Below, piece by piece: positions 6,397-58,977 of a stretch of DNA of 64,000 nucleotides. The DNA comes from Manis javanica. Lineage: Eukaryota > Chordata > Mammalia > Pholidota > Manidae. The translations under genes were made by a program, and so were the position numbers. The notes beneath the pieces were generated by a model. It searched no databases. It had not been told where the DNA came from and worked only from the letters and a program-made list of their open reading frames with translations. Each line of letters begins with the position of its first letter. The first letter of the stretch is position 1. Location: NCBI RefSeq assembly GCF_040802235.1, contig NC_133165.1, positions 44,777,629-44,841,628 of the forward strand, in the 5' to 3' direction.

Positions 6397-6794
6397 AAGA
6401 CTCACTTTTATACTTTCTACACTCCAACTTTTACATTTAAAGAGAAAAGAGAATCAGTGAAGTATTTTATGGTAATGTTTTTCATACTGTCTTCAAAATC
6501 TTGTGAGACACAAAGATGAGCCTGGCCAGGCTGCACACAGAGGTCCCTTCCCTGTTCCAATGCACAGATTGACAGACACAGGCACCCACCTAGAAGGGCA
6601 TTTCTTGAAATTTCCATGATGTATTTTTCTGTTTTCAACAGTTGTTTTTCTGTTTGTTGGTTTGTTTGTTTTAAGAATTTTCTTTTAAGGTTCTGGACTC
6701 ATAGCTGATTGGAAACCAGAGAATTCAGCAAGTCCTTTCTCTTAGTAAAGTTTCATATGAAGTAACTTTAGGAAAGTTTTGCTTTACAAAATAA
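6397..6794. other. Unassigned spacer
   Basis: No gene or recognisable repeat is seen here apart from a T/G-rich patch near 6645-6672. It is flanked by two L1 elements. Confidence 0.5.
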
Positions 6795-12393: not shown

Positions 12394-13017
12394 ACACTCC
12401 CAAACTCATTCTACCAGGCCAGCATCACTCTAATACCAAAACCAGGCAAAGAAACCACAGAAGAAGAAAATTACAGACCAATATCCCTGATGAACATAGA
12501 TGCAAAAATACTAAACAAAATATTAGCAAACCGAATTTAAAAATATATCAAAAAAGATCATACATCATGATCAAGTAAGATTTATTCCAGGGATGCAAGG
12601 ATGGTACAACATTCAAAAATCCATCAACATCATCTACCACATCAACAAAAACTAGGACAAAAACCACATGATCATCTCCATAGATGCTGAAAAAGCATTC
12701 AACAAAATTCAACATCGATTCATGATAAAAACTCTCAACAAAATGGATATAGAGGGCAAGTACCTAATAAAGGCTATATATGACAAACCCACAGCCAAGA
12801 TCATACTTAACAGCGAGAAGCTGAAAGCCTTTCCTTTAAGATCAGGAACAAGACAAGGATGCCCACTCTTTCCACTTTTATTCAACATAGTTCTGGAGGT
12901 CCTAGCCATGGCAATCAGACAACACAAAGAAATGAAAGGCATCCAGAATGGTAAAGAATAAGTTAAACTGCCACTGTTTGCAGATGACATGGCATTATAC
13001 ATTAAAAACCCTAAAAA
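12394..13017 (+). mobile_element. Outer L1, 5' piece (L1-D), ORF2 reverse transcriptase part
   Basis: This is a 5'-truncated L1 beginning inside ORF2 at the equivalent of L1-E 25943. It covers reverse transcriptase sequence with a few stops and shifts. The catalytic region (TTTGCAGATGAC, Phe-Ala-Asp-Asp) is intact at about 12977-12988. It stops at ...ATTAAAAACCCTAAA, exactly the ORF2 position at which L1-C resumes at 30425. The two are halves of one insertion. Confidence 0.9.
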
Positions 13018-13783: not shown

Positions 13784-14321
13784 TGTCCCGACCTGCAGGA
13801 CTATCAATAGGGGTCGATGACCTAGAGGAGAGAATGAAGAGGCAAGAGACACAAAGAACAGACAGCAAGACAGGATGTCTGATCAAGCTGACCAATTTTA
13901 TTTTTCTCAGGTGCAATTTATATAGGTTGTGATGAAAAAATATATGTAAAGAGGTGATTGGTCTTCAGGTGGCACCAGCGGGAACGTGTAGAGAGGTGAT
14001 TGGGCTTCAGGTGGCGCCGGCGGGAACCGAGGACCCGGAAGAGAAGCAGGAAGTTCGCCATCTTGTGGGTGGGGACCCTTGGGAGGGAGGTTTAAGGGTG
14101 GGGCTTTTCCCTGGGGCAGCGGGTGTTCTTGAGAAGCAGGAGTTTGGCAGGGTTAGAAGGCCAGTGGAAAGAACGGAGGAGGAAACATTGCTTAGCAATC
14201 TGACTGCAGGATCTATATTGATTTGGCTAGGAGAGCAACTCTGCCTTACTGCAGAAATGATTGCTGTTGTCTTAAGACTTACATAACTAGCATTGCTTAA
14301 AAGTCCATACACTCACTCCCA
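13784..14321 (-). repeat. 3' LTR of the provirus
   Basis: 538-bp LTR bounded on the + strand by TGTCCCG... and ...CACTCCCA. On the minus strand a TATATAAATT box lies at 13924-13915 and an AATAAA at 13902-13897. These are only about 13 bp apart, so AATAAA is in U3 or at the start of a short R. Against the 5' LTR I count about 11 substitutions and one 2-bp indel over roughly 480 bp. Confidence 0.93.
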
Positions 14322-14340
14322 GCATCTCCCCCTTTCTTTA
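14322..14340 (-). promoter_or_regulatory. Polypurine tract
   Basis: The minus strand reads TAAAGAAAGGGGGAGATGC directly upstream of the 3' LTR. It is purine-rich and correctly placed as the plus-strand DNA primer. The last few bases before the LTR are not pure purine. Confidence 0.8.
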
Positions 14341-14652
14341 TTAAAAATTAAGACGATTTTGGTTGAGCAGGCTAAGGGGCGGGGACAGGGGCCTGATCCT
14401 CAGTGGATATCTGGTGCGTGAAGAGGACTCTTAGTCTTACAGGCTCTGCTGAAGAGAAAGAGTTTCTCTATTAAGCGCAAGGTGTCTTTTTCCTGAGGAG
14501 AGGAGGATGCAGGACACAAACCTCTATGCAATCAGGTATGTCCCTCAAGGAACCCAGGGCAGGCGTTAGCCTTTCCTTTGCAGTGCTTTGCCTCACATCC
14601 CCCTTAGTACTCAACCGGCACTCAGAGACTCCTGGAAGGGTCGCGCTGGTGC

Positions 14653-15226
14653 TTACTTTTGCTGAGAAGAGCTAGAGGGGGGTGCTTTGTCGTCGTCATC
14701 ACTCTCACGAGCTAGTTTGTGATAGTGGACTTGGATAGGTTTGCCAACAAGGGTATCTATTTGTCTCTTTATATGGCTCATCAAATGTTTAAGAGCCCAA
14801 GGGCCAAAAGACAAGAGCAATATCAATCCTATGAGGGGGCCTAGGAGAGAGGGCAAGAGAGTAGTAAGCCATGGGGAGGCTGAAAACCAATTTTTATACC
14901 AACTTTCATCTTGCTCTCTTTCTTTCTTTCTTTTTTCTAACCCTTCTCTAACTCTTTTCATACTATCTCTAACTACTCCTGTTTTATCAGCATAGAAGCA
15001 GCACTCTTCTTTCAGGCGGCGCAAAGCCCACCTTGCTGCAGAAAGAGTAGGTCTAGCCCTCTGCGGTTTTGTAGAACTACTTCAGTGAGGGACGCGATGG
15101 AATCTGTCAGGTCAGAGATTCCTTTCTGCAATTCTTGGATATCTTGATCTATAGTGGCACTGAGCTTGTGATAGCAGGAGTTAGAAAGAAGCAGAGAAGA
15201 TATGCCTGTGCCTGCACCTACAGTCC
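14653..15226 (-). pseudogene. Provirus env, transmembrane subunit remnant
   Basis: The reading frame at 15024-14653 holds the paired cysteines that end the CX6CC-type motif at about 15003-14998. It then has a charged helix, a Trp-rich pre-membrane segment (SWYKNWF), a hydrophobic anchor (LLPSLLGPLIGLILLLSF) and a cytoplasmic tail with acidic and serine runs. The upstream heptad/fusion-peptide region at about 15226-15025 is in other frames, so TM is separated from SU by frame breaks. The CX6CC arrangement is gamma/type-D-like. It is not expressible as a continuous protein. Confidence 0.85.
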
Positions 15227-16560
15227 CTAGGCTGAGCAGAACAGCGATAGTAACAGCAGTAATGGGTTCTCGGTGGGAGCAGGGAGGGAAGGGTCTGAAG
15301 ATTGTTCCCAGATATGGAAGAACTCATCAGGATGGTAGCAAATGAGCCTGGGTATAACTTTTATGAGAACACAAAATCCATGCTCTTGTAAAATGGGATT
15401 GTAGGCACAGGGGGTGATTCCGTCTAAGCAGGCCCACCAGGTATCATTGGGGGGAACTATAAATTGGGGTCCCTGTCCAATGGAGAAGATTTCTCGACAG
15501 AGGTGGGTGTACTCATGAGGGATCTTTTGAAGAGTGTTAGTTATACAAGTCTGGTTACCGACTACTTGGGCTAAGGTTAGGCCTTCCCAACTAGCGCGTT
15601 TCCAACAGCAGTTGTAGGTATCATTGGAGGTGGAGAAGTTGCCAGGGATGGTGGCACCTTCATAAAAAGGGGGGGAAGAGTGGTAACATAACCAACATTC
15701 GGCAGTAAGCTCGGGAGTGGAGGAATTAAGACTAAGGAAGGTTTGATTTATAAGGGTGAGGACAAGGTCTTTAGAGCTCGCTAGGGTGGACACTGGCGGT
15801 GTAGGGGAGGGTTTAAGACTGCTAGTTGTGAAGCTATGGTTAGGCGAGAGGGTGGAAGGCTTCAGTGGGGGAGGGTGCTTCCCACCTAGGACTGTATTTG
15901 GGCCTATAGCAGCAGAAGGGGTGGCAGGGAACTCTTTAAGAAGTTTAATAGTAAAGGTGATGCCTTCATCATAATGTTCTTTATATAAGCAAAGACCCCA
16001 AGTATATCCTTGTGTCCAGCTGGAGGCTTTTTTCCCTGTTTCGGTGAATGTGACTGAAAGAGGGTTGCACCAACCTCTAGTAGCACTGTATGTGTGCTCG
16101 CATTCTGGGAGGGCCTCAGGGTACTGAGGATTCTTGAATGGACGCCTGTTCACAAACGGACTGTGGGAGTAATTTGCTCTGGCTATAATGTAATCCCAGG
16201 AAGAGGATGGCTTCCAATAGGTATCTCTCATGGTCTCACACCCCCATGAAGCACAATAAAAATCTGTTTTGCCTCCGCATTTATGGAGGAGTTCATGGGG
16301 TCGGTGTTGCCCGGGGCAGACATAAAAAGAATATGACCTAAGAACTGACCGGCGCCCAGAATCTGAACAACCTGGCATGGCTACATGATCTTTCCAGAAG
16401 ATATTGGGCCGGAACTCTGGTCTAGAAGGTGTTCTATTCCCCAGGGGGCCCCTGCTCCCAGGGCTAACTTACAAAGATCAGGTTGTAAAACACTTGGCCA
16501 CCAGACGTCTGGCGAGGTTTGAGAGCAGGACCAAACAACATCTCCTCTTTCAGAAAGCAC
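15227..16560 (-). pseudogene. Provirus env, surface subunit remnant
   Basis: Open from ATG 16378 to 15227 (383 codons). The frame is also open upstream of this ATG toward about 16450, so the true start and signal peptide are uncertain. It has many cysteines, several N-x-S/T sites, a Ser/Pro-rich middle (residues about 165-205) and a CWLC motif at residues 228-231, the SU-TM disulphide-isomerase motif of gamma- and type-D envelopes. The 3' end of this frame is hydrophobic and then stops, so it no longer reads into TM. Confidence 0.85.
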
Positions 16561-16603
16561 TATCCAGGTGTAGTTCCAGGGAAAGTGTCAGGATCTCATG
16601 GGT

Positions 16604-17506
16604 TTAGGCGCTGGCTGATGGCTCAGAGCTGTGGTCATGATCAGGAGGATGAGGACTTTTGGCGACTGCATCCGCAATGGAAAGAGAATTTGTCTCAGGC
16701 GGAGATGGGAGCTCCAGTCTGGACTGTGGTAAGTTAGCGGTTTTAACTAGCCTTTCAGGGAGCCATCGAGGCTCGGAGTTTTGCTGCTCATAAATGCAGA
16801 CGGACCCTCGGCCCCAGATAATAACGGGGTCGGGACCTTTCCATGCGAAGGTCAGTGGATCTTTCCATTTTACTAACGCTTGAAGTTCATTGGTTTTTGG
16901 GTGCCATAACCGAACAGCAGCTGAGCGTCTGTGGGAGTCGAGCGTCAAGAAGTTAATGACAAACAAGGCATGACTAAGTTGATTATGGGGGCTGATAGTT
17001 GTATACAGGAGGGGATTGTTCTTGAGGCAGGAGAGCGTGTTTATAAGAGTTTGATGAGCTCGCTCTATAATTCCTTGTCCTTGGGGATTATATGGGATGC
17101 CTGTGATACGTTTTATCTGGAAGTCAGAACAGAAGCACTGAAATTTAGCTCCTGTGTAACCTGGCCCATTGTCAGTTTTTATTATCTTTGACTTGTCTAG
17201 CACTGTAAAACAGCGCAAGGTGTGGGTAATGACATCTTTAGAAGCCTCTCCGGTAAGGGGCGAAGCAAAGATAAAACCACTAAAGGTATCTATAGTAACA
17301 TGGAGGTATTTCATCTTTTTAAAGGGGGTGAAATGAGTGACATCCATTTGCCAAATTTCATTTGAGATTAGGCCCCGAGGGTTCAGGGACAGGAAGATGT
17401 GGAGCACAGTCATTACATCTTTTGACAATTTCTCGGGCTTGCTCTCTGGTAATTTTGAACATGAGCCGCAGAGTATTTGCTGAAACGTGGTGGAGCGAGT
17501 GAGCAT
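16604..17506 (-). pseudogene. Provirus pol, integrase core and C-terminal domain
   Basis: This 300-codon open stretch encodes the integrase catalytic core with the D,D35E triad visible at D55 (WQMDVTH), D112 (KTDNGPGY) and E148 (GIIERAH). The C-terminal domain follows with WKDPLTFAW, IIWGRGSVC and WLPERLV. The N-terminal HHCC zinc domain lies in the neighbouring frame (end of 18089-17358), so the protein is frameshifted. The sequence is betaretrovirus-like. Confidence 0.92.
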
Positions 17507-18089
17507 GCTGAGCTTGAGTTAGGGGTGCACCGCTGAAAGCTGGCGCTATTAAGGGAAGGGTACGGGTGGCCTGGTCAGCAAGGGCATTGCCTGCTGAAAG
17601 AGGGCCAGGGAGTCCTGTGTGAGCCCGCAAATGGCCAATAAAAAAGGGGTTGGAGCATCGGACTATGAGATATTGAATTTGTCTAAACAGATCAGCGGCA
17701 TTGGAGGAAGGTTTAATAAAGGGAGTGGTTTCTAGGAGAGGTACTGAGTGGGCTATGTAGGAACTATCTGTATAGAAATTGAAAGGGGTATTAGAGAGTG
17801 GTTGGAACACTTGGAGGACTGCGTAAAGTTCAACAAGTTGGGCGGATGAAAAGGGAGTGGGCAGGGAGACGGGGGTTTTATCTTGAATAACATATGCTCC
17901 CCGCCCTGTTGCTGAGCCATCTGTGAAGACGAGGAGGGCTTCTCGCAAAGGAGAGGGGGAGGTAACTTTGGGGAAAACTAGGGGATGTAGTCTACTAAAC
18001 TGGATTAAAGGGTCAATGGGATAATGATTATCTATGGTCCCAGCAAAGGAGGCACAAGCGATACCCCAGTCATCGTTGGTTTGTAGCAA
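17358..18089 (-). pseudogene. Provirus pol, RNase H and integrase zinc domain
   Basis: RNase H motifs appear in order: LVFTDGSATG, VELYAVL, FYTDSSYI and GNALADQAT, with the D/E/D/D residues kept. The frame continues into the integrase HHCC domain (HSLHH...CNDC). It overlaps the integrase-core frame by about 150 bp, showing a frameshift near 17400-17500. A TAA-like break at 18090 separates it from the RT connection domain. Confidence 0.9.
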
Positions 18090-19234
18090 CTAATCTATCT
18101 GCTCTGTAGTATATGGAACAACAAGGATATCGGGATCATTACCAAAATACTGTCTGCTTAGTTTTCTTCCTTTTATAATAACAGAGGCAGCTAGGGAAAA
18201 GTAAGGTGTTAGAACGTTCACAGGTTTGCTGGAGAGGTAGACCCAAAGAAGAGGCTTGCCTTGTTGTTCAAGGGTCTTGGCTGACTGCCAAAAAACTCCT
18301 ACTGGAGCATGGGTGGTGGCACAAATGATAAGATATAAAGGAGAGGAGTAGTCAATCTGAAAGGAGGTTTGTAGAGAGATAGCTTGATTTATCTGTTCTA
18401 TAGCAGCAACTGCTAGGGGCATTAGGGTGTGGGGGGAGAGGGGATGCGAGTTGCCTGCCAGTAAATTGTTTAAGGGAGTTAAACTTTCAGGGGGAAGTTT
18501 TAGGTATGGCCTTAAAAACTGTAGGTTGCCTAACAATTTTTGAAAGTCATGCAGCGTCTTAAGGGAAGAAGTGTGGAGCTCTATGTTAGGTGTGAAAATT
18601 CGGTGAGCTCGGAGGCTATAGCCTAGGTAAGTATAGGGTTAGGAAAACTGAATTTTATTGGGAGCAATTTTCAAGTGGGAGGCTTCAAGGGTTTCTAGGA
18701 GGTGTTGGAAACAGGCAATGCCTTGAGCTCCGTCGGGGGAAGCAATAAGTATGTCATCCATGTAATTAAGGAAGTAAATATGAGGCCATTGTCTCCTAAC
18801 GGGGTCTAGAATTCGGGCTACGAATTTTTGGGCTAAGGTAGGGCTATTCGCCATACCTTGGGGAAGAACACGCCATTGATACCTAGGCATTGGTTTGTTA
18901 AAGTTGATCTGGGGAAGGCTAAAGGCAAAATGGATACTATCATCTAGGTGGAGAGGAATAGTAAAGAAGCAATCTTGCAGGTCTATAACAATCTTATAAT
19001 AGTTTATGGGTATAGCAGCAGGGGACGGGAGGCCAGGCTGCAAGGCACCCATAGGGACCATAACTTTATTAATGGCTCAAAGGTCTTGTAGGAGCCTACA
19101 TTTGCCTGATTTTTTTTGCGATGACAAAAATGGGGGTATTCCAAGGAGAATTGGAAGGTTCGATATGGCCTGCTACCAGCTGCTCCTGTATGAGCTGCAT
19201 GGCTGCATGTAGTTTTTCTGCATTCAGAGGCCAC
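18090..19234 (-). pseudogene. Provirus pol, reverse transcriptase
   Basis: The RT fingers begin near 19234. The palm is open at 19061-18639, with VLPQGMANSP and the YMDD catalytic motif at 18764-18753. Thumb and connection follow at 18536-18090 after a break of about 100 bp. The YMDD aspartates are preserved, but in-frame stops and shifts (near 19060, 18640-18540 and 18090) break the enzyme. It copies viral RNA to DNA in the intact family. Confidence 0.9.
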
Positions 19235-20085
19235 TGATCAACCCAGACAGGCTCGGTTGTTTTCCATGTTATTTTATCAGCATACTGCTGGGGTACAGGT
19301 ATGATTGTGGCCTCTAGGGGAAAGGGAATCCTAGTCCCTTTCTCTTTAGTATTTGATATGATGGTCACAGGAGTTCTAATACCTTGTGCATTCATTCCTA
19401 GCCCTTGGCCAGGCAAGTAGCCTTGTGTCAGCATTTGCTTGGTCACTAACTTGTTTGGGCTACACATAATAATATTCATTTGAGAGAGAATGTCTCATCC
19501 CCACAAATTGACTGGAACCCTAGGAATTACAAAAGGAATAACTGTCCCTGAATTCCCTTCTTGATCTGACTAATGAAGGGACTGGGAACTAACTTGAGGG
19601 TTTTGTGACTATCCGATTCCCTGTAGGTGGGTGGTGGAGTTTGTAAGGGGCCAGGAAGGGGGCCACTGCTCTTTGGCAATAACAGTGGCATCTGCTCCTG
19701 AGTCTAGGAGGCCTTGAAAGGCTTTCCCATTTAAGGACAGAGTTAGCATGGGCCGGGCACACATAATTTGTTGAGTCCAATAGACATCTGTGGTGCCTAT
19801 GTCACTCGTTTCACAGTGCTCTTTAAGGCACTTATTGGAGGAAGGGATAAGGGGTAGGAGAAGAAGTTGGGCAAGGGTATATTCTGCAGGAATATATAGA
19901 GGGCCCTTAAGAGTGGAGGCTAGGATCTGAATTTCTCCTTTGAAATCTGGATCAATTACTCCAGGGTGTATTTGAAGCTCTTTTAGGGAGGCTGAAGCAC
20001 GTCCCAGAATTAAGCTGAAAGTGTTAGAGGGGAGGGGCCCTCGGATGCCCATCTGTAGAAGCTTTGTCCCTTCTTCTGGAGTCAA
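19096..20085 (-). pseudogene. Provirus pro region: dUTPase, protease, G-patch
   Basis: The 20085-19609 frame begins in the dUTPase fold (GVIDPDFKGEI, residues 42-52, the conserved motif 3). It continues into an aspartic protease with LLDSGADATVIA; the catalytic Asp codon is at 19704-19702. After a break around 19600-19490, the 19479-19096 frame carries a G-patch ([14 protein letters not shown]) and enters RT. A dUTPase fused to protease in pro, followed by a G-patch, is typical of betaretroviruses. The frame break near 19609 inactivates it. Confidence 0.9.
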
Positions 20086-20111
20086 TATTGTACTGGTGGT
20101 GGAACAGAGGT

Positions 20112-22434
20112 CTAATCCTGGGCTGTTTTTTGTGGCTCTTCAGAGGTCTGAAATTGATTTTGGGTTACTGTCGAGGGGATGAACCCAGTTGCTCCGGGGT
20201 GCATCTTCTGCAGGGGGGCCGGCGGCTGCCCCCTGAAGGGGTTTTCCTGGTTCCTAAAAGGGAGGGGCAGACCTTGTATATCGGTTTTTGACCGGCATTC
20301 TTTGGCCCAGTGGTATCCTTTTTGACATCTGGGACAAGGGGTGGAGGGGGGGGATGGATTAGTTGGTTTAGGGGTGTTGCCAGAATCGCTAGGAAGGGGC
20401 AGATTAAGGCCAGAATTGGGAGGCCAAGGGTTTTGAGGCTGTGGGCAATCTTTGGCAAAATGACCAGGCTGCTTGCAATTAAAGCAAGTTTTTTGTGTTG
20501 AGCCAATGCCTGCCCTTTGCAAGGCAACTCCAATAGCCAGTCCAATGGCATGACTAGTTCCGGCACCTGCGCAGAGGCACACAAAGTCGGACACTGACTC
20601 TTTGCGATGATGCCGAAGCAGGTCTTGACAGACTGGATTAGCATTCTCAAAAGCCAGCTGTTTAATAAAGGGGTTGTTGGGCTCTTGGATTCCGAACATG
20701 CGCTCAACTGCCTCCGTAAGGCGGCTGATGAAAGAGCTATAGGGCTCGTCTGCTTCTTGCCATATCTTAGTAAGAGTGGCAGTAGCGGCTCCTCTAGGGG
20801 TAACTTTTTCCAAGCTCCGAGGCCAGCTTGTCTGACTTGAGCCAGGAGGCCTGTGGGAAAGCATGCTTGGACTGCTAGAGTGTTATAAGGAGCTTCACCT
20901 AAAATTCTTTTTGCTGTCCAGTCTCGGGAACTGGGTTGGGTAAGATTTTTACTTTCAATTTCTTTAGCGAATTCGGCAAGCTCGGCTTTCCAAAGAACAA
21001 AGTCTCCCCTGTTTAAGGCTGCGCGAGCAAGCTGATGGAATTCATTTGGGGTAAGCCAATCATTGGTGATAGATTCTAACAGAGCTAGAGTAAATGGGGC
21101 GGTAGGTCCATAATTGGAAACAGCTGACTTGAGCTTCTCTAGAGCTCGGATATCTAGGGGTGAAAAGGATGTTCTTTTTATAGGGGCTGGGTCTCTCATC
21201 CCTGGAGGCCTGTCGCTAGGACATGGGCCTCTTTCGGCTCGGTCTTCAGGGCTATCGTTTAGATGGTCATCTCCATCGTCGTGCCATGAATCTCTCTGGG
21301 CTCTATCATCAAGAGTAGTACTCACGGGACTTTCTTGTCTCATATCAGGATCAGTGCTCTCTTCTTCAGGGTTATCGGGGTCAAATAACTTAGGGGAGGG
21401 GCTCCGGGGAATAGAAACCCCACTCCATAGGGAGACAGGAAAAGTCAGGACAGGGTTGGGCGATTTTTTTGTTTTGTGAAAAAGTGATTTTGAGGGAGGC
21501 GGAGTACTTTTAGAGGAAGAATTTGGGGTGTGGGTTAAATGGGTTAGATTGGAGAGCTCTTGATCTAGGTCGCGAATGGCTTGTAGGAGTTGGATTTGTA
21601 CTTTTCTATTTTTGACCATCTGCCTGAGGACTGAGAGGTCATTTGCAGCATGTAAATGCTCACAGGAGAGAGAGGAGAAGGTGGGAAACATTTGGTCATG
21701 AACAGGGGCGGGGGAATGAAGGGTGGTAAGGTTACTGCTTGTGGGTGAAGTGCAGAGGCAAGGGCGATGGTAGTGGCCTTAGGTGGCCAGTCAGGATTGT
21801 TATAACGCGCTGCCTCTTCTTCTAAAGTGGCTTCATCAGCGGGATCAAGGGGCTCAGCAGGACTTAAGTTGATGAGGCTAAGGTAAATATTTGGGGGAGG
21901 GATAGCACGGAGAGGACGGGAGTCATTGGAGTTATTAGGGGAGGAAACTTTTTCCGTCAGTGACAGGGAAAGAGACTCGACAGTCGGTAAAGGTGGGAGT
22001 CTGTCCGATATTTGAGAGGGGTTTGCAGCGGAATCTGAAGGATGTTCTTTGAGAGAAGGGGAGGCTGGCCGAGAAGCCTCGCAGGGGGGACGAGAGCGGG
22101 ATCTCATGGTTTTTTCTCCCTCAATGACAACTTTTTGTAAATCGGGCCACTCGCGATGAACACGCAAGATATCATTAATAAGATTCCAATAGCTAAATGC
22201 TGACACAGGTACTTTTTCTGGACTAAAAACTCTGTAATAGTCTTGAAGGCAATCGCCTACTTGTCAACATTTCTTTTCACTAATGGTCCCTTCCTGAGGG
22301 AACCAGGGACACACATTTTCAATAAAGGCTAAAAAACGTTTCGAATCTTTTTTCTTAACCCTTGTTCCTCATGTCCTGAGGGACTCTTTGAGTCCGGCTA
22401 TAAACAAATCTTCTTGCGAGGATGCTTGCCCCAT
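20112..22434 (-). pseudogene. Provirus gag (MA-CA-NC), broken
   Basis: The start is an ATG at 22434-22432 followed by Gly-Gln, a myristoylation-type MGQ start. The reading stops after 21 codons. Matrix sequence resumes in other frames (22206-21565). Capsid follows at 21691 to about 20850 and, after a shift, at 20864-20112. That last frame contains the major homology region (IWQEADEPYSSFISRL) and two nucleocapsid zinc knuckles (CFNCKQPGHFAKDC, CPRCQKGYHWAKEC). A proline/serine-rich acidic spacer lies between MA and CA. At least three frame breaks are present. Confidence 0.9.
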
Positions 22435-22444
22435 GACTTACCTT
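22435..22444 (-). promoter_or_regulatory. Provirus major splice donor
   Basis: The minus strand reads AAG/GTAAGTC immediately before the gag ATG at 22434. It is a perfect match to the U1 consensus. Its position fits a donor for spliced env mRNA. Inference from sequence only. Confidence 0.6.
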
Positions 22445-22604
22445 CTCAAATCCATCGCTGATTGAGTATATATGAGTCTCTCTCATGCCGGGTTCAGAAT
22501 GTGGAGACTCTGGCAAGGGTCTTGTAGCTGCAGACACCTCCTTTCATGGGTGGGCCCACCCCCACCCTCCTGGGGGAGATGTTCTCGCCTCTCCGGTCTG
22601 TCGG

Positions 22605-22622
22605 GCCCCATGTTGAGCGCCA
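22605..22622 (-). promoter_or_regulatory. Primer binding site, tRNA-Lys1,2 type
   Basis: The minus strand reads TGGCGCTCAACATGGGGC, two bases inside the 5' LTR. It matches the tRNA-Lys1,2 primer site used by type D and other betaretroviruses at 16 of 18 positions. Both mismatches are transitions. Confidence 0.85.
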
Positions 22623-22624
22623 GT

Positions 22625-23115
22625 TGTCCCGACCTGCAGGACTATCAACGGGGTTCGATGACCTAGAGGAGAGAATGAAGAGGCAAGAGACACAAAGAAC
22701 AGACAGCAAGACAGGATGTCTGATCAAGCTGACCAATTTTATTTTTCTCAGGTGCAATTTATATAGGTTGTGATGAAAATATATGTAAAGAGGTGATTGG
22801 TCTTCAGGTGGCACCAGCGGGAACGTGTAGAGAGGTGATTGGGCTTCAGGTGGCGCCAGCGGGAACCGAGGACCCAGAAGAGAAGCAGGAAGTTTGCCAT
22901 CTTGTGGGTGGGGGCCCTTGGGAGGGAGGTTTAAGGGTGGGGCTTTCCCCTGGGGCAGCGGGTGTTCTTGAGAAGCAGGAGTTTGGCAGGGTTAGAAGGC
23001 CAGTGGAAAGAACAGAGGAGGAAACGTTGCTTAGCAATCTGACTGCAGGAACTATATTGATTTGGCTAGGAGAGCAACTCTGCCTTACTGCAGAAATGAT
23101 TGCTAGCTCCCAGCA
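22625..23115 (-). repeat. 5' LTR of the provirus (U3 end shortened)
   Basis: It aligns with the 3' LTR from TGTCCCG... to ...CAGAAATGATTGCT at 23104. The remaining outer U3 end, about 57 bp in the 3' LTR, is reduced to AGCTCCCAGCA before L1 5' UTR sequence resumes. A deletion of about 45-50 bp inside or across the U3 end is the simplest reading. The TATA (22756-22765) and AATAAA (22738-22743) are retained. Confidence 0.88.
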
Positions 23116-23347
23116 ACGGGGCTCCACCATTTTGGAGCAGCAGCCCGAGCCAGGTCACCCCCACAGCAACAGTGGATATAAACTCCATAGCAACTGTGCA
23201 GGTAGCAGAAGCCCTGTCTGTGTGCAGCTACCCAGCACAAGCCACTAGAGGTCGCTGTTCTCCCAGGAGTGGAAGGCCACAAACCGACAACAAGGGAAGT
23301 TCTTCCAGCCATCACTCATTCCAGCTCTGCAAACTATCTCTATCACC

Positions 23348-24238
23348 ATGAAAAGGCAAAACTACAGGCAGACAAAGATCACAGAGACAACACCTGAGAA
23401 GGTGACAGACCTAACCAGTCCTCCTGAAAAAGAATTCAAAATAAAAATCATGAACATGCTGACAGAGAAGCAGAGAAAAATGCAAGAGCAATGGGATGAG
23501 ATGCAGAGAAAAATGCAAGAGTAATGGGATGAAGTCCGGAGGGAGATCACAGATGTCAGGAAGGAGATCACAGAAGTGAAACAAGCCCTGGAAGGATTTA
23601 TAAGCACAATGGATAAGATGCAAGAGGCCATTGAAGGAATAGAAACCAGAGAACAGGAACGAATAGAAGCTGACATAGAGAGAGATAAAAGGATCTCCAG
23701 GAATGAAACAACACTAAGAGAACTATGTGACCAATCCAAAAGGAATAATATTCGTGTTTTAGGGGTACCAGAAGAAGAAGAAAGAGGAAAAGGGATAGAA
23801 AGTCTCTTTGAAGAAATAATTGCTGAAAACTTCCCCAAACTGGGGGAGGAAATAATCGAACAGACCACGGAAATACACAGAACCCCCAACAGAAAGGATC
23901 CAAGGAGGACAACACCAAGAAACAAAATAATTAAAATGGCAAGGATCAAGGACAAGGAAAGAGTTTTAAAGGCAGCTAGAGAGAAAAAGGTCACCTATAA
24001 AGGAAAACCCATCAGGCTAACATCAGACTTCTCAACAGAAACCCTACAGGCCAGAAGAGAATGGCATGATATATTTAATGCAATGAAACAGAAGGGCCTT
24101 GAACCAAAGACACTGTATCCAGCACGACTATCATTTAAATATGATGGCAGGATTAAACAATTCCCAGACAAGCAAAAGCTGAGGGAATTTGCTTCCCACA
24201 AACCACCTCTCCAGGGCAACTTAGAGGGACTGCTCTAG
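23348..24238 (+). pseudogene. L1-E ORF1 (one premature stop)
   Basis: From ATG 23348 (MKRQNYRQTKITETTPEK) the frame is continuous to the natural stop at 24236-24238 except for a TAA near 23521, in a duplicated MQRKMQE-type heptad block (two copies of the AAAATGCAAGAG unit at 23476 and 23511). The C-terminal 220 codons include the RNA-binding core (NNIRVLGVPEEEER) and ARIKDKERVLKAAREKK. It encodes the L1 RNA-binding trimer. It is nearly intact but cannot give full-length protein. Confidence 0.88.
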
Positions 24239-24382
24239 ATGGGAGCACTCCTAAAAAGAGCACAGAACAAAACACCCAACATATGAAGAATGGAGGAGGA
24301 GGAATAAGAAGGGACAGAAGAAAAGAATCTCCAGACAGTGTATATAACAGCTCAATAAGCGAGCCAAGTTAGGCAGTAAGAT

Positions 24383-27300
24383 ATGAAAGAGGCTAACCTT
24401 GAATCTTTGGTAACCACGAATCTAAAGCCTGCAATGGCAATAAGTACATATCTCTCAATAGTCACCCTAAATGTAAATGGACTTAACACACCAATCAAAA
24501 GACACAGAGTAATAGAATGGATAAAAAAGCAAGACCCATCTATATGCTGCTTACAAGAAATTCACCTCAAACCCAAAGACATGCACAGACTAAAAGTCAA
24601 AGGATGGAAAAACATATTTCTGGCAAACAACAGTGAGAAGAAAGCAGGGGTTGCAGTACTAATATCAGACAAAATAGACTTCAAAACAAAGAAAGTAACA
24701 AGAGATAAAGAAGGACACTACATAATGATAAAGGGCTCAGTCCAACAAGAGGATATAACCATTCTAAATATATATGCACCCAACACAGGAGCACCAGCAT
24801 TTGTGAAACAAATACTAACAGAACTAAAGAGGGAAATAGACTGCATTACATTCATCTTAGGAGACTTCAACACACCACTCACCCCAAAGGGTAGAGCCAC
24901 CGGGCAGAAAATAAGTAAGGACACACAGGCACTGAACAAGACACTAGAACAGATGGACCTAACAGACATCTATAGAACTCTGCATCCAAAAGCAACAGGA
25001 TATACATTCTTCTCAAGTGCACATGGAGCATTCTCCAGAATAGACCACATACTAGCCCACAAAAACAGCCTCAGTAAATTCCAAAATATTGAAATTTTAC
25101 CAACCAATTTTTCAGACTACAAAGGTATAAAACTAGAAATAAATTCTACAAAGAAAACAAAAAGGCTCACAAACACATGGAGACTTAACAACATGCTCCT
25201 AAACAATCAATGGATCAACGAACAAATCAAAACAGAGATCAAGGAATATATAGAAACAAATGACAACAACAACACAAAGCCCCAACTTCTGTGGGACTCA
25301 GCAAAAAAAGCAGTCTTAAGAGGAAAGTATATAGTGATCCAGGCACACCTGAAGAAGGAAGAACAATCCCAAATGAATAGTCTAACATCACAATTATCGA
25401 ATCTGGAAAAAGAACAAATGAGGCCTAAAGTCAGCAGAAGGAGGGACATAATAAAGATCAGAGAAGAAATAAATAAAATTGAGAAGAATAAAACAATAGC
25501 AAAAATCAATGAAACCAAGAGCTGGTTCTTTGAGAAAATGAACAAAATAGATAAGCCTCTAGCCAAACTTATTAAGAGAAAAAGACAATCCACACAAATC
25601 AACAGAATCAGAAATGAGAATGGAAACATCACGACAGACTCCACAGAAATACAAAGAATTATTAAAGACTACTATGAAAACCTATATGCCAACAAGCTGG
25701 AAAACCTAGAAGAAATGGACAACTTCCTAGAAAAATACAACCTTCCAAGACTGACCAAGGAAGAAACACAAAAGTTAAACAAACCAATTACGAGCAAAGA
25801 AATTGACACGGTAATCAAAAAACTACCCAAGAACAAAACCCTTGGGCCGGACGGATTTACCTCGGAATTTTATCAGACACACAGAGAAGACATAATACCC
25901 ATTCTCCTTAAAGTGCTCCAAAAAACAGAAGAGGAGGGAATACTCCCAAACTCATTCTATGAAGCCAACATCACCCTAATACCAAAACCAGGCAAAGACT
26001 CCACCAAAAAAGAAAATTACAGACCAATATCCCTGATGAATGTAGATGCAAAAATACTCAATAAAATATTAGCAAACAGAATTCAACAGTATATCAAAAG
26101 GATCATACACCATGACCAAGTGGGATTCATCCCAGGGATGCAAGGATGGTACAACATTCGAAAATCCATCAACATCATCCACCACATCAACAAAAAGAAA
26201 GACAAAAACCACATGATCATCTCCATAGATGCTGAAAAAGCATTTGACAAAATTCAACATCCATTCATGATAAAAACTCTCAGCAAAATGGGAATAGAGG
26301 GCAAGTACCTCAACATAATAAAGGCCATATATGATAAACCCACAGCCAACATTATACTGAACAGCGAGAAGCTGAAAGCTTTTCCTCTGAGATCGGGAAC
26401 TAGACAGGGATGCCCACTCTCCCCACTGTTATTCAACATAGTACTGGAGGTCCTAGCCACGGCAATCAGACAAAACAAAGAAACACAAGGAATCCAGATT
26501 GGTAAAGAAGAAGTTAAACTGTCACTATTTGCAGGTGACATGATATTGCACATAAAAAACCCTAAAGACTCCACTCCAAAACTACTAGAACTGATATCGG
26601 AATACAGCAAAGTTGCAGGATACAAAATTAACACACAGAAATCTGTAGCTTTCCTATACACTAACAATGAACCAATAGAAAGAGAAATCACGAAAACAAT
26701 TCCATTCACAGTTGCATCAAAAAGAATAAAATACCTAGGAATAAACCTAACCAAAGAAATGAAAGGCCTATACCCTGAAAACAACAAGTCACTCTTAAGA
26801 GAAATTAAAGGGGACACTAACATACGGAAATTCATCCCATGCTCATGGCTAGGAAGAATTAATATCATTAAAATGGCATCCTGCCCAAAGCAATATACAG
26901 ATTTGATGCAATCCCTCTTAAATTAGCAGCAACATTCTTCAATGAACTGGAACAAATAATTCAAAAATTCATATGGAAACACCAAAAACCCCAAATAGCC
27001 AAAGCAATCCTGAGAAAGAAGAATAAAGTAGGGGGTATCTCACTCCCCAACTTCAAGCTCTACTACAAAGCCACAGTAAGCAAGAAAATTTGGTACTGGC
27101 ACAAGAACAGAGCCACAGACCAGTGGAACAGATTAGAGACTCCAGACATTAACCCAAACATATATGGTCAATTAATATTTGATAAAGGAGCCATGGATAT
27201 ACAATGGCAAAATGACAGTCTCTTCAACAGATGGTGCTGGCAAAACTGGACAGCTACATGTAGGAGAATGAAACTGGACCTTTGTCTAACCCCATACACA

Positions 27301-28257
27301 AAAGAAAATTCGAAATGGATCAAAGACCTGAATGTAAGTCATGAAACCATAAAACTCTTAGAAAAAAACATAGGCAAAAACCTTTTAGACATAAACATGA
27401 GTGACCTCTTCTTGAACATATCTCCCCAGGCAAGGAAAACAACAGCAAAAATGCACAAGTGGGACTATATTAAGCTGAAAAGCTTCTGTACAGCAAAAGA
27501 CACCATGAATAGAACAAAAAGGAACCCTATAGTATGGGAGAATATATTTGAAAATGACAGATCTGATAAAGGCTCGACATCCAAAATATATAAAGAGCTC
27601 ACCCACCTAAACAAACAAAAAACAAACAATCCACTTAAAAAATGGGCAGAGGAACTGAGCAGACAGTTCTCCAAAAAAGAAATACAGATGGTCAACAGAC
27701 ACATGAAAAAATGCTCCACATCACTAATTATCAAAGAAATGCAAATTAAAACTACAATGAGGTATCACCTCACACCAGTAAGGATGGTTGCCATCCAAAA
27801 GACAAACAACAACAAATATTGGCGAGGTTGTGGAGAAAGGGGAACCCTCCTACACTGCTGGTGAGAATGTAAATTAGTTCAACCATTGTGGAAAGAAGTA
27901 TGGAGGTTCATCAAAATGCTCAAAACAGACCTACCATTTGACCCAGGAATTCCACTCCTAGGAATTTACCCTAAAAACGCAGCACCCAAGTTTGAAAAAG
28001 ACAGATGCACCCCTATGTTTATCGCAGCACTATTTACAATAGCCAAGAAATGGAAGCAACCTAAGTGTCCATCAGTAGATGATTGGATAAAGAAGATGTG
28101 GTACATATACACAATGCAATATTACTCAGCCATAAGAAGAAAACAAATCTTACCATTTGCAACAACATGGATGGAGCTAGAGGGTATTATGCTCAGTGAA
28201 ATAAGCCAAGTGGAGAAAGAGAAATACCAAATGATTTCACTCATCTGTGGAGTGTAA
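24383..28257 (+). pseudogene. L1-E ORF2 (mutated RT motif and frameshifts)
   Basis: Open for 847 codons from ATG 24383 to 26926. The endonuclease ([33 protein letters not shown]) and most of the reverse transcriptase are in one frame. The RT catalytic box reads FAGD at codons 716-719, not FADD: codon 718 is GGT at 26534-26536. L1-D and L1-A keep FADD. A single-base loss near 26878 (GGCATCC against GGCCATCC) shifts the frame. The C-terminal region continues in other frames at 27193-27864 and 27886-28257, the natural stop. The element is therefore incapable of reverse transcription. Confidence 0.92.
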
Positions 28258-28604
28258 GAACAAAGGAAAAACTGAAGGAACAAAACAGCAGCAGAATCAC
28301 AGAACCCAAGAATGGACTAACAGGTACCAAAGGGAAAGGGACTGGGGAGGATGGGTGGGTAGGGAGGGATAAGGGGGGGGGGAAGATGAAGGGGGTTATT
28401 AAGATTAGCATGCATAAAGGGGGAGGTGGGAGAAAGGGGAGGGCTGTACAACACAGAGAAGACAAGTAGTGATTCTACAGCATTTTGCTATGCTGATGCA
28501 CAGTAACCGTAAAGGGGTTTATAGGAGGGACGTGGTATAGGGGAGAGACTAGTAAACATAATATTCTTCATGTAATTGTAGATTAATGATAACCAAAAAA
28601 AAAA
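28258..28604 (+). other. L1-E 3' UTR and first A-tract
   Basis: Typical 3' UTR text of this L1 family: GAACAAAACAGCAGCAGAATC, a G-rich run at 28334-28382 that could form a quadruplex, then ATATTCTTCATGTAATTGTAGATTAATGATAACC and A10. In an ordinary L1 the insertion would end here. In this one it does not. Confidence 0.85.
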
Positions 28605-28766
28605 GAAAGAAAGGGGGATTACTCCCTGATAGGATAAATCTAACTGTAAGTCAATGATTAATGTATGCTTTAAATATCCTTAATTTTTATCATTTAAAGG
28701 GTGTCAGATGATCAGGTATGGAAGTACATTTTTCTGATAATATTCTTTTCTCTTAAAAAAAAAAAA
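28605..28766 (+). other. Linker between L1-E and the ERV tail
   Basis: About 150 bp of AT-rich sequence (GGATTACTCCCTGATAGG...TTCTCTT) ends in A12 at 28755-28766. It is absent from the left-edge L1-A composite, whose A-tail joins ERV sequence directly. I do not recognise it. It may be genomic flank captured with the ERV, or a later insertion ending in its own A-tract. Confidence 0.5.
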
Positions 28767-28958
28767 GCAGTTCCTGTGTGGTGACCTCCAATAAGTTCTT
28801 CACAATGGTATAAAGGGCATATCAAAGTGTGGGCAAAGGGTCTGTTTGTGTTTATACAGAGGATCAAAGCCTAATTTCGCTACCCAGAAAACGAACTAAG
28901 ATACGATATTAAGAAGAAGTTCCAACATCTACATACTCTGGAAGAGTCATTCCAGAAG
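28767..28958 (+). pseudogene. Retroviral integrase C-terminal remnant in the L1-E tail
   Basis: Across two frames, short stretches resemble the integrase C-terminal domain seen in the nearby provirus: ...QWYKGHIKVWAKG, then SVCVYTEDQSL and LPRKRTKIR. The order W-x-P...KG-x-x-x-VW-x-x-GSVC...LP-x-R matches the provirus order WKDPLT...GPDPVIIWGRGSVC...WLPERL. Stops and a frameshift make it a relic. It is followed within about 60 bp by env TM-like sequence, so the SU part of env is deleted. Confidence 0.6.
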
Positions 28959-29457
28959 ATGATCATCAAAAACGTCAACAAAGATCCTGGCGTTGTTGCA
29001 GTTGTAGCTGCATTCATCTCATTGGTTCCTGGAATTGCCATTGGAATGAAGAAGGATATATCTAAGCTGGCCTGTGCATACAGTAAAATAACAAATTTGA
29101 CTAGATCTATACTGTCGGAACTCAACCAAGAATTAGGAGAAGTGCAAGTTGCAGCACTCCAAAATCTTGAGACTACAGACTATCTACTGTTAAAAGAACA
29201 TATAGGATGTGAACAGTTCCCAGGGAATGTGTTATTTTAAACTGTCGGATTTTTCTCAAACTATTCAAATTCAGTTAGACAATATCCATCATATCATAGA
29301 TAAGTTTTCACAAATGCTTAGGGTGCCTAACTGGTTTTCTTGGTTTCACTGGAGATGGCTGGTAATTGTAGTTCTGCTTTGGTTATGTAACTGTATTCCT
29401 ATTATGTTAATGTGTGTGCACAATATAATTAGTAGTTTAAAACCTATACATGCTTAA
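28959..29457 (+). pseudogene. Env TM-like remnant in the L1-E tail
   Basis: Two overlapping frames, 28959-29240 and 29209-29457, are separated by a shift near 29210-29240. The first begins with a hydrophobic, Ala/Val/Gly-rich segment (VVAVVAAFISLVPGIAIGM) that could be a fusion peptide, then a heptad-rich helix. The second has a further helix, Trp-rich WFSWFHWRW, a membrane anchor (LVIVVLLWL) and a short tail. The layout fits a retroviral transmembrane subunit. I cannot place the family. The cysteine pattern differs from the CX6CC type of the 9.3-kb provirus, so it is a different ERV. Confidence 0.6.
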
Positions 29458-30090
29458 GTTACTCTACAAAAACATATGTCAAAGAAATAACCAATCTTCC
29501 CATGTTTTCTTCTGTCTGCTACTTCTATAGCTTTTTTTCTTCCTTCCTAATTACAACCCTTAAATAGAATTCATGCCTCATATCGAATTTACCGAGTATC
29601 ATGATTCTTCCAAGTGGTAAAGATCCCTCAAGACAAATGCTGGACATAAAACCCACTGGGCATATATCTGCAAAGAAGTAAAAAGCTAACCTTTTCAAAC
29701 AATATTGCCTCTCTCTCACCTACCAACTTTACATTTTCCTGTATGGCCCCGGAAGATGACTGGTTAGCCAGAGACGGGTAAGATTCCTCAAGGGAGGAAC
29801 AACCTAAGACAGGCACAGTCGCAGGGGGGCCATCAGGTGAGAAATTGGGGATCAACAGAGGTGAGGCTTACAGCCTCACCCCCCCCCCCCGTTTTGAGAG
29901 AAATCTTCTGCATCTGTGGATGTTTTGTTGCCCTTGTCTAGCTTGGATTGATACTTAGCCTATAGGCACACACATGATCATCTACATTTGCTTTCTTACA
30001 GCACTAAACTATGTTTTCTACCTTTATCTTGCATCTACCTACCACTTCAGCATTTTATTAAAAATAATAATAATAATAATAAGGAAGAAA

Positions 30091-30413
30091 TGTGGGATTC
30101 ACATATAAATCAAGTATAAAAATCAAACAAATATTCATATTTGACCTGATTGTTTATAGTTCATAATGTGTGATCAAAACCGAAAGTTTCTGTGACGACT
30201 GCCCATGTACTGTTCACCATGTAAGAACTTATTCACTATGTAAGAATTTGTACACCATGTAAGAACTTGTTCGTTGTGCTTCAGAAGATCCGAGACTGAT
30301 GAGAATTAGACTTGGGGTGGATTAATGATTGTGCATTGAGTCCCCTGTACAGAATTTTATTGTTGTTAACTGTTAACAACCATTTGATCAATAAATATGA
30401 AAGATGCCCTCTC
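30091..30413 (+). repeat. ERV LTR (U3-R only) forming the 3' end of the composite
   Basis: TGTGGGATTC follows a purine tract (AGGAAGAAA), as an LTR follows a PPT. Inside is a short tandem motif CACCATGTAAGAACTT, repeated three to four times at 30217-30272 (CATGTAAGAACTTATTCACTATGTAAGAATTTG...). AATAAA is at 30390-30395, and the sequence ends in CTCTC followed by A's. There is no U5. Ending at the R poly(A) site shows the copy was made from a polyadenylated RNA. The LTR signal therefore served as the 3' end of the L1-E transcript. Confidence 0.75.
30390..30395 (+). terminator. AATAAA used by the composite transcript
   Basis: AATAAA lies 19 bp before the A-run that begins at 30414 and is followed by the target duplication. 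That is normal spacing for cleavage and polyadenylation. Confidence 0.8.
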
Positions 30414-30424
30414 AAAAAAAAAAA

Positions 30425-32454
30425 CCCTAAAGAATTCACTCCAAAACTACAAGATCTAATATCTGAATTCAGCAAAGTTGCAAGATACAAAATCAATACC
30501 CAGAAATCTGTTGCATTCCTATACATTATTGATGAACTAGCAGAAAGATAAATCAGGAAAAAATTCCATTCACAGTTGCACCAAAAAGAATAAAATACCT
30601 AGGAATAAACCTAACCAAGGAAGAGAAACACCTATACTCTGAAAACTACTAGACACTCATGAGAGAAATTAAAGAAGACACCAATAAATGGAAACACATC
30701 CTATGCTCATGGATAGGAAGAATTAATATTTTCAAAATGGCCATCCTGCCTAAAGCAATCTACAGATTCAATGCAATCCCTATCAAAATACCAACAGCAT
30801 TCTTCAATGAACTAGAGCAAATTGTTCTAAAATTCATATGGAACCACAAAAGACCCCGAATAGCCAAAGCAATCCTGAGAAGGAAGAATAAAGTGGGGGA
30901 GATTACACTTCCCAACTTCAAGCTCTACTACAAAGCCACAGTAATCAGGGCAATTTGGTACTGGCAGAAGAACAGACCCATAGACCAATGGAACAGACCA
31001 GAGAGCCCAGATATAAACCCAACCACATATGGTCAATTAACATATGATAAAGGAGCCATGGATATACAATGGGGAAATGACAGCCTCTTCAACAACTAGG
31101 GTTGTTGCAAGAGAAAGAAACTGGATTATTGTCTAATCCCACACACAAAAGTAAACTCAAAATGGATCAATGACCTGAATATAAGTCATGAAACCATAAA
31201 ACTCTTAGAAGAAAACATAGGCAATAATCTCTTGAATATAAACACAAGCAACTTTTTCCCAAATGCATCTCCTTGGACAAGGGAAACAAAATAAAAAATG
31301 AACAAATGGGACTACATCATACGAAAAAGCTTCTGCACAGCAAAGGACGCCATCAGCAGAACAAAAGGGCATCCTACAGTATGGGAGAGTATATTTATAA
31401 ATGACATATCCAACAAAGGGTTAACATCTAAAATATATAAAGAACTCATATGCCTCAAAACCCAGAAAACAAATAGCCCTATCAAAAAATGGGTAGAGGA
31501 GATGAACAGACACTTCTCCAAAGAAGAAGTTCAGATGGCCAACAGGCCCATGAAAAGATGTTCCACATGGCTAATTATCAGGGAAATGCAAATAAAACCA
31601 CAATGAGATATCACCTCACACCAGTTAGGATGCCAACATAAAAAAGACTAGGAACAAACAACAACAAATGTTGGCGAGGTTGTGGAGAAAGGGGAACCCT
31701 CCTACACTGCTGGTGAGGATGTAAATTAATTCAACCATTGTGGAAAGCAGTATGGAGGTTCCTCAAAATACTCAAAATAGACTTACCATTTGACCCAGGA
31801 ATTCCACTTCTAGAAATTTACCCTAAGAATGCAGCACTCCAGTTTGAAAAAGACAGATGTACCCCTATGTTTATCGCAGCACTATTTACAATAGCCAAGA
31901 AATGGAAGCAACCTAAATGTCCATCAGTAGATGAATGGATAAAGAATATGTGGTACATATACACAATGGAATATTATTCAGCCATAAGAAGAAAACAAAT
32001 CCTACCATTTGCAGCAACATGGATAGAGCTGGAGGGTATTATGCTCAGTGAAATAAGCCAAGCAGAGAAAGACAAATAACAAATGATTTCACTCATCTGT
32101 GAAGTATAAGAACAAAGGAAAAACTTAAAGAACAAAACAGCAGCAGAATCACAGAACCCAAGAATGGACTAACAGTTACCAAAGGGAAAGAGACTGGGGA
32201 GAATGGGAGGGTAGGGAGGGATAAGTGTGGGGAAGAAGAAAGGGGGCATTATGATTAGCATGCATAATGTGGGGGGAGGGGCATGGGGAGGGCTGTGCAA
32301 CACAGAGAAGGCAAATAGTGATTCTACAACATCTTACTATGCTGATGGACAGTGACTGTAATGGAGTTTGTGGGGGGACTTGGGGTAGGGGAGAGCCTAG
32401 TAAGCATAATGTTCTTCATGTAATTGCAGATTAATGATAACAAAATTTTTTTTT
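30425..32454 (+). mobile_element. Outer L1, 3' piece (L1-C1)
   Basis: It resumes ORF2 at CCCTAAAGAATTCACTCC, exactly where L1-D stops at 13017. It contains the rest of the reverse transcriptase, the C-terminal region (open pieces 30659-31099, 31298-31606 and 31738-32079) and the 3' UTR to GATTAATGATAACAAAA at about 32440. Multiple stops are present. Its terminal tract AAAATTTTTTTTTT is unusual for an L1 tail and abuts another L1 fragment. Confidence 0.9.
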
Positions 32455-45549: not shown

Positions 45550-56621
<11,072 letters not shown>

Positions 56622-56836
56622 GGGGGCCTGGGTCCCTGGGTCACCTGTACTCCTCCCCACCCCTCCTGCCTTCCACTTCATGCCCAGCGGGGCTGGAATG
56701 TGACCCAACCAGCTCTGCTGCTTTGCCAGAACCTCCAAAATACCCCACCCTCCTGGGTTGCAGCGGCTTCAGATAATTGGGCCTCAGTGCCCAGCTATTC
56801 TGGGCCCTGGAATCCTTGGGGGCAGAGCAAGCGGAC

Positions 56837-56842
56837 AATAAA
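56837..56842 (+). terminator. PRSS36 poly(A) signal
   Basis: AATAAA (GGACAATAAAGGTG) lies 216 bp after the stop codon and gives a short 3' UTR. A G/T-rich CTTGTGGCATTGCTGCGG follows as a likely downstream element. Confidence 0.85.
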
Positions 56843-56859
56843 GGTGTAAACACGGACTC

Positions 56860-58940: not shown

Positions 58941-58977
58941 GGAGGAGGGTGTTGTGCTGGGAGGACGCAGGTCCTTG

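What the first reader, a model, noticed from the sequence alone, without database searches (positions are those of the whole stretch)
28594..30431. L1 that carries an ERV-derived 1.8-kb 3' end: a composite L1-ERV retrotransposon
Seen: L1-E's own 3' UTR and A-tract end at about 28604. The inserted unit continues through a linker, an integrase C-terminal remnant, an env TM-like segment, a PPT and an LTR U3-R, then A's. AAAAACCCTAAA follows, the same sequence that precedes the L1 5' end at 13004-13015, and the host L1's ORF2 resumes there in register. So L1 and ERV tail were copied together from one RNA that was cleaved after the LTR's AATAAA. Known: L1 3' transduction occurs when the weak L1 signal is bypassed. 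Inference: here the ERV signal became the 3' end, and the tail may be a stable part of an L1 subfamily.
Basis: partly seen in the sequence, partly recalled or inferred. Interest (0 to 1): 0.92.

Follow-up and report, generated by a model that had tools for sequence, protein, structure and literature searches.

The report
Pangolin L1 with retroviral 3' tail
In the pangolin genome a common jumping gene (LINE-1) picked up the back half of an ancient retrovirus as its own 3' end, and thousands of insertions ending in that retroviral piece now lie across the genome.

Summary
The window lies in a Malayan pangolin assembly. The L1/ERV junction is not unique: 40 of 40 scored genome hits span it. Of 20 fetched copies, 13 reach an L1 5' end and 7 are 5'-truncated L1s; 18 of 20 end at the same ERV base followed by an A-run. 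Target-site duplications bracket the whole unit in 11 of 17 independent insertions and in the window copy. A 22-mer of the tail's end plus A5 has 19,183 exact matches; the same end followed by non-A bases has 9.

One correction: the 'linker' is retroviral integrase sequence, contiguous with the rest in a related provirus. There the junction is a textbook L1 endonuclease site (TTTT/AA). So an L1 probably landed in sense orientation inside an env-deleted provirus, and its RNA ran on to the LTR's poly(A) site and founded a lineage. Side lineages lost the 'linker'; many of those carry a third 3' module.

The closest analogue is the SINE-R end of SVA, here on an L1 with its own ORFs. How many of the roughly 18,000 tails descend from L1-bearing copies rather than a tail-only family is open.

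The parts
13004..13015 (+). 5' target-site duplication AAAAACCCTAAA
13016..13783 (+). L1 5' end / 5' UTR part shared with other composite copies
   Evidence: 12 of 20 fetched copies start within 13016-13030
13784..23113 (.). DNA absent from the other composite copies, i.e. nested insertion(s) in this copy, including retrovirus-like open frames on the minus strand
   Evidence: alignments of other copies pass from about 13783 to about 23114; open frames
23114..28604 (+). rest of the L1: ORF1 and ORF2 region (longest open stretch 847 aa at 24383-26926, so ORF2 is broken) and 3' UTR with A-run 28595-28604
28605..28981 (+).
   Evidence: contiguous in provirus L040:2149-2517; integrase match
28983..29460 (+). 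ERV part 2: env TM remnant; the env surface part (906 bp of the provirus) is missing before it
30080..30091 (+). polypurine tract next to the LTR start (named from recall of the motif)
   Evidence: sequence
30091..30413 (+). LTR U3-R with AATAAA at 30390-30395; ends where a real LTR goes on into U5
30414..30424 (+). A-run of the insertion, overlapping the TSD
30420..30431 (+). 3' target-site duplication AAAAACCCTAAA
1..6396 (-). second composite: L1 down to 236, then tail from 234 to the window edge without the 'linker'; the unit goes on outside the window (L029)
6397..6409 (-). 5' TSD of the second composite, AAAAGTGAGTCTT (AAAAGTGGGTCTT at its 3' end in L029)

Best explanation
This is one copy of a large family of composite L1 elements. 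An L1 inserted in sense orientation into the integrase gene of a class II (alpha/beta-like) endogenous provirus that lacked the env surface part. Its transcript ran past the L1 end into the 3' half of the provirus and was polyadenylated at the proviral LTR. L1 proteins copied that RNA by target-primed reverse transcription, and daughter copies kept the retroviral end, with its AATAAA signal, as their own 3' end. Shown: recurrent junctions, one common 3' end, bracketing TSDs, 5' truncation, copy number, and that the tail is contiguous 3' provirus sequence minus env surface. Inferred: the founding insertion, and read-through rather than template switching. A guess: that the LTR's poly(A) signal helped the lineage spread.
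For: Junction recurs in 40 of 40 scored hits. Of 20 fetched copies 13 reach an L1 5' end and 7 are 5'-truncated; 18 of 20 end at window 30422-30424. TSDs of 9-17 bp in 11 of 17 independent insertions. 19,183 exact tail ends with A5 against 9 with non-A. The provirus carries 'linker' and tail in one piece and at the junction reads TTATTTATTAAAACGAAAAGGGGG, i.e. TTTT/AA on the bottom strand. Two junction words, 1,255 and 595 exact. A tail-only 5'-truncated copy has a perfect 16-bp TSD.
Against: No TSD was found in L009, L021, L025 and L026; L018's tail is interrupted and L020 has only a low-complexity match. Of 100 listed mid-tail sites only 7 have the exact tail-start word and 4 the 'linker' word at the right distance, so most tails may be truncated, diverged or tail-only. 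The founding locus was not found. The provirus seen is only about 80% identical, so the junction site is a homologue, not the donor. L1 and tail distances correlate weakly (0.29 over 78 pairs) on star-like trees.
Confidence: 0.85

Rival explanations
1. The founder arose by template switching: reverse transcription started on a polyadenylated ERV RNA, stopped in the integrase region and jumped to the poly(A) of an L1 RNA. The later history is the same.
For: It also gives L1-poly(A)-ERV. Repeated 3' ends inside the TSDs of L011 and L022 start at internal A-rich tracts, as template jumps would. Template switching by L1 is known (PMC13174262 and PMC12593883, abstract or passages).
Against: The junction falls on a TTTT/AA site of the provirus homologue, which a jump does not need.
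Confidence: 0.25
2. The tail is mainly an independent non-autonomous, SINE-R-like family moved by L1 in trans; the L1-bearing copies are a minority of fusions.
For: Mid-tail word 17,691 against 2,603 tail starts after AAA; 11 of 100 listed mid-tail sites have an exact tail-start or 'linker' word; L045 is a tail without L1.
Against: L045 begins at 29281 with its own TSD, as 5' truncation gives; the other two mid-tail sites read are joined to L1. Exact-word counts also depend on divergence. Only three sites were sampled.
Confidence: 0.15
3. A separate insertion of the ERV piece into this L1's A-tail (TSD of A's).
For: A-runs at 28595-28604 and 28755-28766 would allow it at this locus alone.
Against: The junction recurs in 40 of 40 scored hits and the second A-run corresponds to an A-rich stretch of the provirus.
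Confidence: 0.02

Closest known systems
SVA (SINE-R end)
   Same: Its SINE-R end derives from the env 3' end and 3' LTR of HERV-K10 (PMC12593883 passages): the same part of a retrovirus, ending in an A-tail and moved by L1.
   Different: SVA has no L1 ORFs and carries hexamer, Alu-like and VNTR parts. Here the ERV end sits on an L1, and includes integrase sequence.
L1 3' transduction
   Same: Read-through past the L1 end to a downstream poly(A) signal (definition seen in PMC12593883 passages).
   Different: Usually single events or small groups (recall); here it became the lasting end of a lineage with over a thousand exact 'linker' junctions.
HERV-W retrocopies made by L1
   Same: ERV RNA with an LTR poly(A) end copied by L1 (PMC8554740 passages).
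   Different: Those are ERV transcripts without a fused L1.
L1 chimeras and L1 module exchange
   Same: L1 acquires foreign sequence, and new families can follow (PMC13174262 abstract, section 22 and passages; PMC3600994 passages).
   Different: What I saw there concerns mostly 5' fusions or exchange among L1 families. In PMC13174262 'ERV' and 'endogenous retrovirus' occur 0 times.
Chinese pangolin ERV with an L1 between env and 3' LTR (ERV-Gamma.b9-Mpen)
   Same: L1 next to a proviral 3' end in a pangolin (PMC12584738 section 6).
   Different: A gamma provirus reported as one insertion, with no L1 family described in what I saw; the tail here has alpha/beta-like proteins.

Membership tests
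LINE-1 (L1) | ORF2 with L1-type endonuclease and reverse transcriptase | tested here: met
   847-aa open piece matches L1 ORF2 of mammals, best-named kin Manis javanica 93%; the frame is broken in this copy
LINE-1 (L1) | TSD, A-tail, TTTT/AA-type site, 5' truncation | tested here: met
   TSD in window and 11 of 17 independent insertions; 7 of 20 truncated
LINE-1 (L1) | own 3' UTR end followed by the A-tail | tested here: not met
   A-run at 28604 is followed by ERV sequence and the real A-tail lies after 30413; so it is an L1 with a replaced 3' end
LINE-1 (L1) | present retrotransposition activity | not testable with these tools
   no ORF2-length frame in 11 fetched copies or the window (longest 847 aa)
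class II (alpha/beta-like) ERV, for the tail | integrase, TM and LTR in order, LTR with U5 in proviral copies | tested here: met
   L040/L039 order, integrase best 2.6e-9, TM against ASLV TM 6.8e-4
class II (alpha/beta-like) ERV, for the tail | paired LTRs and 4-6 bp duplications around each copy | tested here: not met
   fetched copies have one U3-R end, A-run and 9-17 bp TSDs; so the tails are not proviruses
SVA | hexamer, Alu-like and VNTR parts | tested here: not met
   L1 lies upstream instead
L1 3' transduction | source locus where the L1 lies directly upstream of the transduced DNA | tested here: inconclusive
   a provirus with the empty, A-rich site was seen; an occupied founding locus was not found

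The most novel reading that the evidence does not exclude
A pangolin L1 lineage that evolves by serial 3' accretion. A founder lands in older DNA, its RNA ends at the next poly(A) site, and that site becomes the lineage's new end: first a proviral LTR, then in side lineages a piece resembling the 3' UTR end of an older L1, while losses between A-runs trim the middle. The retroviral end, with a canonical AATAAA in place of the L1 end, would have been an adaptive swap that let the lineage spread.
Probability: 0.45. Interest if true: 0.85.

Novelty: new variant of a known kind. Interest (0 to 1): 0.74.

Why it matters
L1 promoter swaps are well documented. A lasting replacement of the L1 3' end by a retroviral poly(A) site, at this copy number, is not described in the papers that my searches listed (open-access PMC only; most seen as listings). 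It bears on what an L1 3' end must contain, offers a SINE-R-like capture on an element with its own ORFs, and gives a case to test whether a canonical poly(A) signal helps an L1 spread. It may also mislead annotation: such tails could be counted as LTR elements in pangolins, where LTRs are put at 11-14% of the genome (PMC11825179 passage). That last point is a guess.

Tried and rejected
Separate insertion of the ERV piece into the L1 A-tail: rejected by recurrence and the provirus. Splicing as cause of the missing env surface part: no GT...AG at the join. A curated RNA element in the tail: Rfam gave 2 matches up to E 5, both far below their gathering scores. Pfam on four pieces of the tail region: one sub-cutoff match of no bearing. 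Relatives of the TM piece in viral contigs: none; the protein search gave 25 unnamed ENA proteins on short contigs. The diversity profile was spoilt by truncated copies and was redone on complete copies. Trees are star-like with few firm forks; L022 hints at module exchange (its L1 lies near the plain host L1, its tail near the window's) but was not pursued. The idea that the 'linker' was a separate small retrocopy was held until, then dropped.
Full report
WHERE. The window is G000:C10:44777629-44841628 of a 2,559,957,944-base assembly in 63 contigs, whose contig 1 has 241,980,339 bases. PMC11825179 (passages) gives the Malayan pangolin assembly as 2.56 Gb in 62 scaffolds, the longest 241.98 Mb. 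The window's L1 ORF2 is 93% identical over 63% of its length to a Manis javanica L1 ORF2 entry; the closest other named species is a donkey at 75%. So the host is very likely Manis javanica.

OBSERVATION. The unit at 13016-30424 has an L1 5' end; L1 sequence interrupted in this copy by nested DNA; an L1 3' UTR with an A-run ending at 28604; an ERV part ending at 30413; and A's. TSD AAAAACCCTAAA flanks the whole unit, and the top strand at the insertion reads ATT|AAAAA, a usual L1 endonuclease site.

A FAMILY. A genome search with 28500-28900 gave 2656 first-look candidates. 40 were scored and all 40 matched across the junction, the 39 others at 93-96%. I fetched 20 of those 39 at 10 kb each. 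12 start within 13016-13030 of the L1, and one more (L025) has a diverged L1 5' end (70%). 7 are truncated inside the L1 (L012, L015, L020, L021, L023, L026, L028). 18 of 20 end at window 30422-30424; L018 is interrupted at 29920 and L020 ends at 30265. L013, L014, L019 and L027 share flanks and count as one, so there are 17 independent insertions. TSDs of 9-17 bp were found in 11: L010, L011, L012, L013, L015, L016, L017, L022, L023, L024, L028. None was found in L009, L021, L025 and L026; L018 has no 3' end; L020 has only a low-complexity match. The 18 readable 3' ends stop at the same place with AATAAA or a one-base variant upstream.

COPY NUMBER. The 22-mer ATGAGAGATGCCCTCTCAAAAA has 19,183 exact matches over both strands; the reversed control has 0. 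The same end followed by non-A bases gives 9: 4 of these (L038, L039, L041, L042) run into one shared continuation, the real LTR with U5, and two (L035, L036) reach A's a few bases later. The R-U5 boundary at up to 3 mismatches gives 256 places, some in a local array on C10. Other exact words: mid-tail 17,691; tail start after AAA 2,603, with non-A at the two outer positions 31; a subfamily word near the tail start 139; 'linker' 1,255; direct L1-A-rich-tail junction without 'linker' 595. Exact words miss diverged copies, unequally from word to word. Of the first 100 listed mid-tail sites, 7 have the tail-start word and 4 the 'linker' word at the right distance. The tail is on a subset of L1s: of 6 L1 3' ends in the read sequence that the junction search had not chosen, 1 has it.

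WHAT THE TAIL IS. L039 is a real proviral 3' end (C11:70.187 Mb) and L040 lies just upstream. Window 28610-28981 is one unbroken match in L040 at 80%. L040:1999-2421 matches solved retroviral integrases, best 2.6e-9, RSV integrase 7.7e-7; Pfam gave nothing for that piece, but the piece before it matches the integrase core just under its cutoff, 31.5 of 32.6 bits. The tail's TM piece matches ASLV TM at 6.8e-4. So the tail is the 3' half of an alpha/beta-like provirus without the env surface part. The join has no GT...AG, so deletion is likelier than splicing. Open TM stretches in the copies reach 165 aa; no function is claimed. At the homologue of the L1 junction the provirus reads TTATTTATTAAAACGAAAAGGGGG; its bottom strand TTTT/AA is a textbook L1 site. 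Inference: an L1 landed there in sense orientation and its RNA ran on to the LTR poly(A) site. Template switching from an ERV RNA to an L1 RNA remains the main rival for that step.

L1-TYPE INSERTION OF THE TAIL. Three mid-tail sites, the first three listed, were read. Two (L043, L044) are joined to L1. The third (L045/L046) is a tail truncated at 29281 with a perfect TSD AAAACATGTATTTCTG. In L011 and L022 a second copy of the 3' end (from 29672 and from 30052) lies inside the TSD, so it went in as one unit. Both start at A-rich tracts, which fits template jumping by the L1 reverse transcriptase. Among the first 45 of the 100 places listed, neighbouring same-strand ends lie 370, 372, 378 and twice 657 bp apart.

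SIDE LINEAGES. The window's second L1 (minus strand, about 6396 to 236) has the tail without the 'linker'. Beyond the window edge (L029) it has a repeated 3' end, then a third module of about 190 bases ending in an A-run, then about 85 bases and another A-run, closed by a near-perfect TSD, AAAAGTG(A/G)GTCTT. L043 and L044 join L1 at 28536 to the tail at 28849 and carry the start of the same module; they are 95% alike and may be two members or one duplicated insertion. ERV end, A-rich run and module together give 801 exact matches; the module's own, slightly longer word gives 1,008. On contig 1, 16 of 54 no-linker junctions have the module word 1.5-2.3 kb downstream, against 1 of 100 listed 'linker' sites. 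The module resembles, from recall only, the 3' UTR end of common laurasiatherian L1s. The 'linker' form is likely ancestral, because its 'linker' is contiguous with the provirus and could hardly be regained; that L029's tail is the most diverged would then mean an early side branch. This order is inference.

AGE. Mean pairwise K2P is 0.058 for the tail (17 rows) and 0.075 for the L1 3' end (13 rows); the 'linker' at 0.034 is biased low by the search query. At 2.2e-9 per site per year, the average mammal rate quoted in PMC4643047 (passage), the sampled copies are roughly 13-17 million years old, near the Chinese-Malayan pangolin split of about 16.4 Mya quoted in PMC12584738 (passage). L029's terminal branches of 0.068 and 0.078 suggest some 30-35 million years. 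L1 and tail distances correlate at only 0.29, and trees are star-like. No ORF2-length frame was seen in 11 fetched copies or the window (longest 847 aa), so present activity is not shown.

COMPARED WITH WHAT IS KNOWN. SVA's SINE-R comes from the env 3' end and 3' LTR of HERV-K10 (PMC12593883 passages): the same kind of capture, on an element without L1 ORFs. HERV-W retrocopies (PMC8554740 passages) are ERV RNAs moved by L1 without fusion. The L1 chimeras of PMC13174262 (abstract, section 22, passages) are, as far as I saw, mainly 5' fusions; mouse L1s exchange modules (PMC3600994 passages). PMC12584738 (section 6 and passages) describes ERVs of the Chinese pangolin: a gamma provirus with a LINE-1 between env and 3' LTR, and an alpha-like lineage that may be kin of this tail (not tested). 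It also cites Dfam families of Manis javanica. None of the titles listed by searches points to an L1 family with a retroviral 3' end, and one search listed none. Dfam and Repbase could not be searched, so parts may be catalogued there.

VERDICT. New variant of a known kind.

Noticed in passing
window 14653-22206, minus strand: Retrovirus-like open frames (gag-, pol- and env-like by eye, from recall) of another ERV nested in the 5' part of the composite L1; absent from the other composite copies.
   Followed up: no
G000:C13, 19.9-27.3 Mb (L013, L014, L019, L027): One composite insertion with the same flanks at four places on contig 13: a segmental duplication.
   Followed up: partly
G000:C10:1478769-2119329: LTR-U5 matches spaced 44-49 kb apart, nine in a row on + and then three on -, as if a unit of about 45 kb were tandemly amplified.
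   Followed up: no
G000:C1:1823005/1827767, 4500632/4505394, 23476198/23480960: Three pairs of tail starts in opposite orientation, each exactly 4,762 bp apart: an inverted pair copied at least three times.
   Followed up: no
L011/L031, L022/L032, L029: Tandemly repeated 3' ends starting at internal A-rich tracts; in L011 and L022 they lie inside the TSD.
   Followed up: partly
window 53864-62683: Open stretches that look like trypsin-type serine protease exons (from recall).
   Followed up: no
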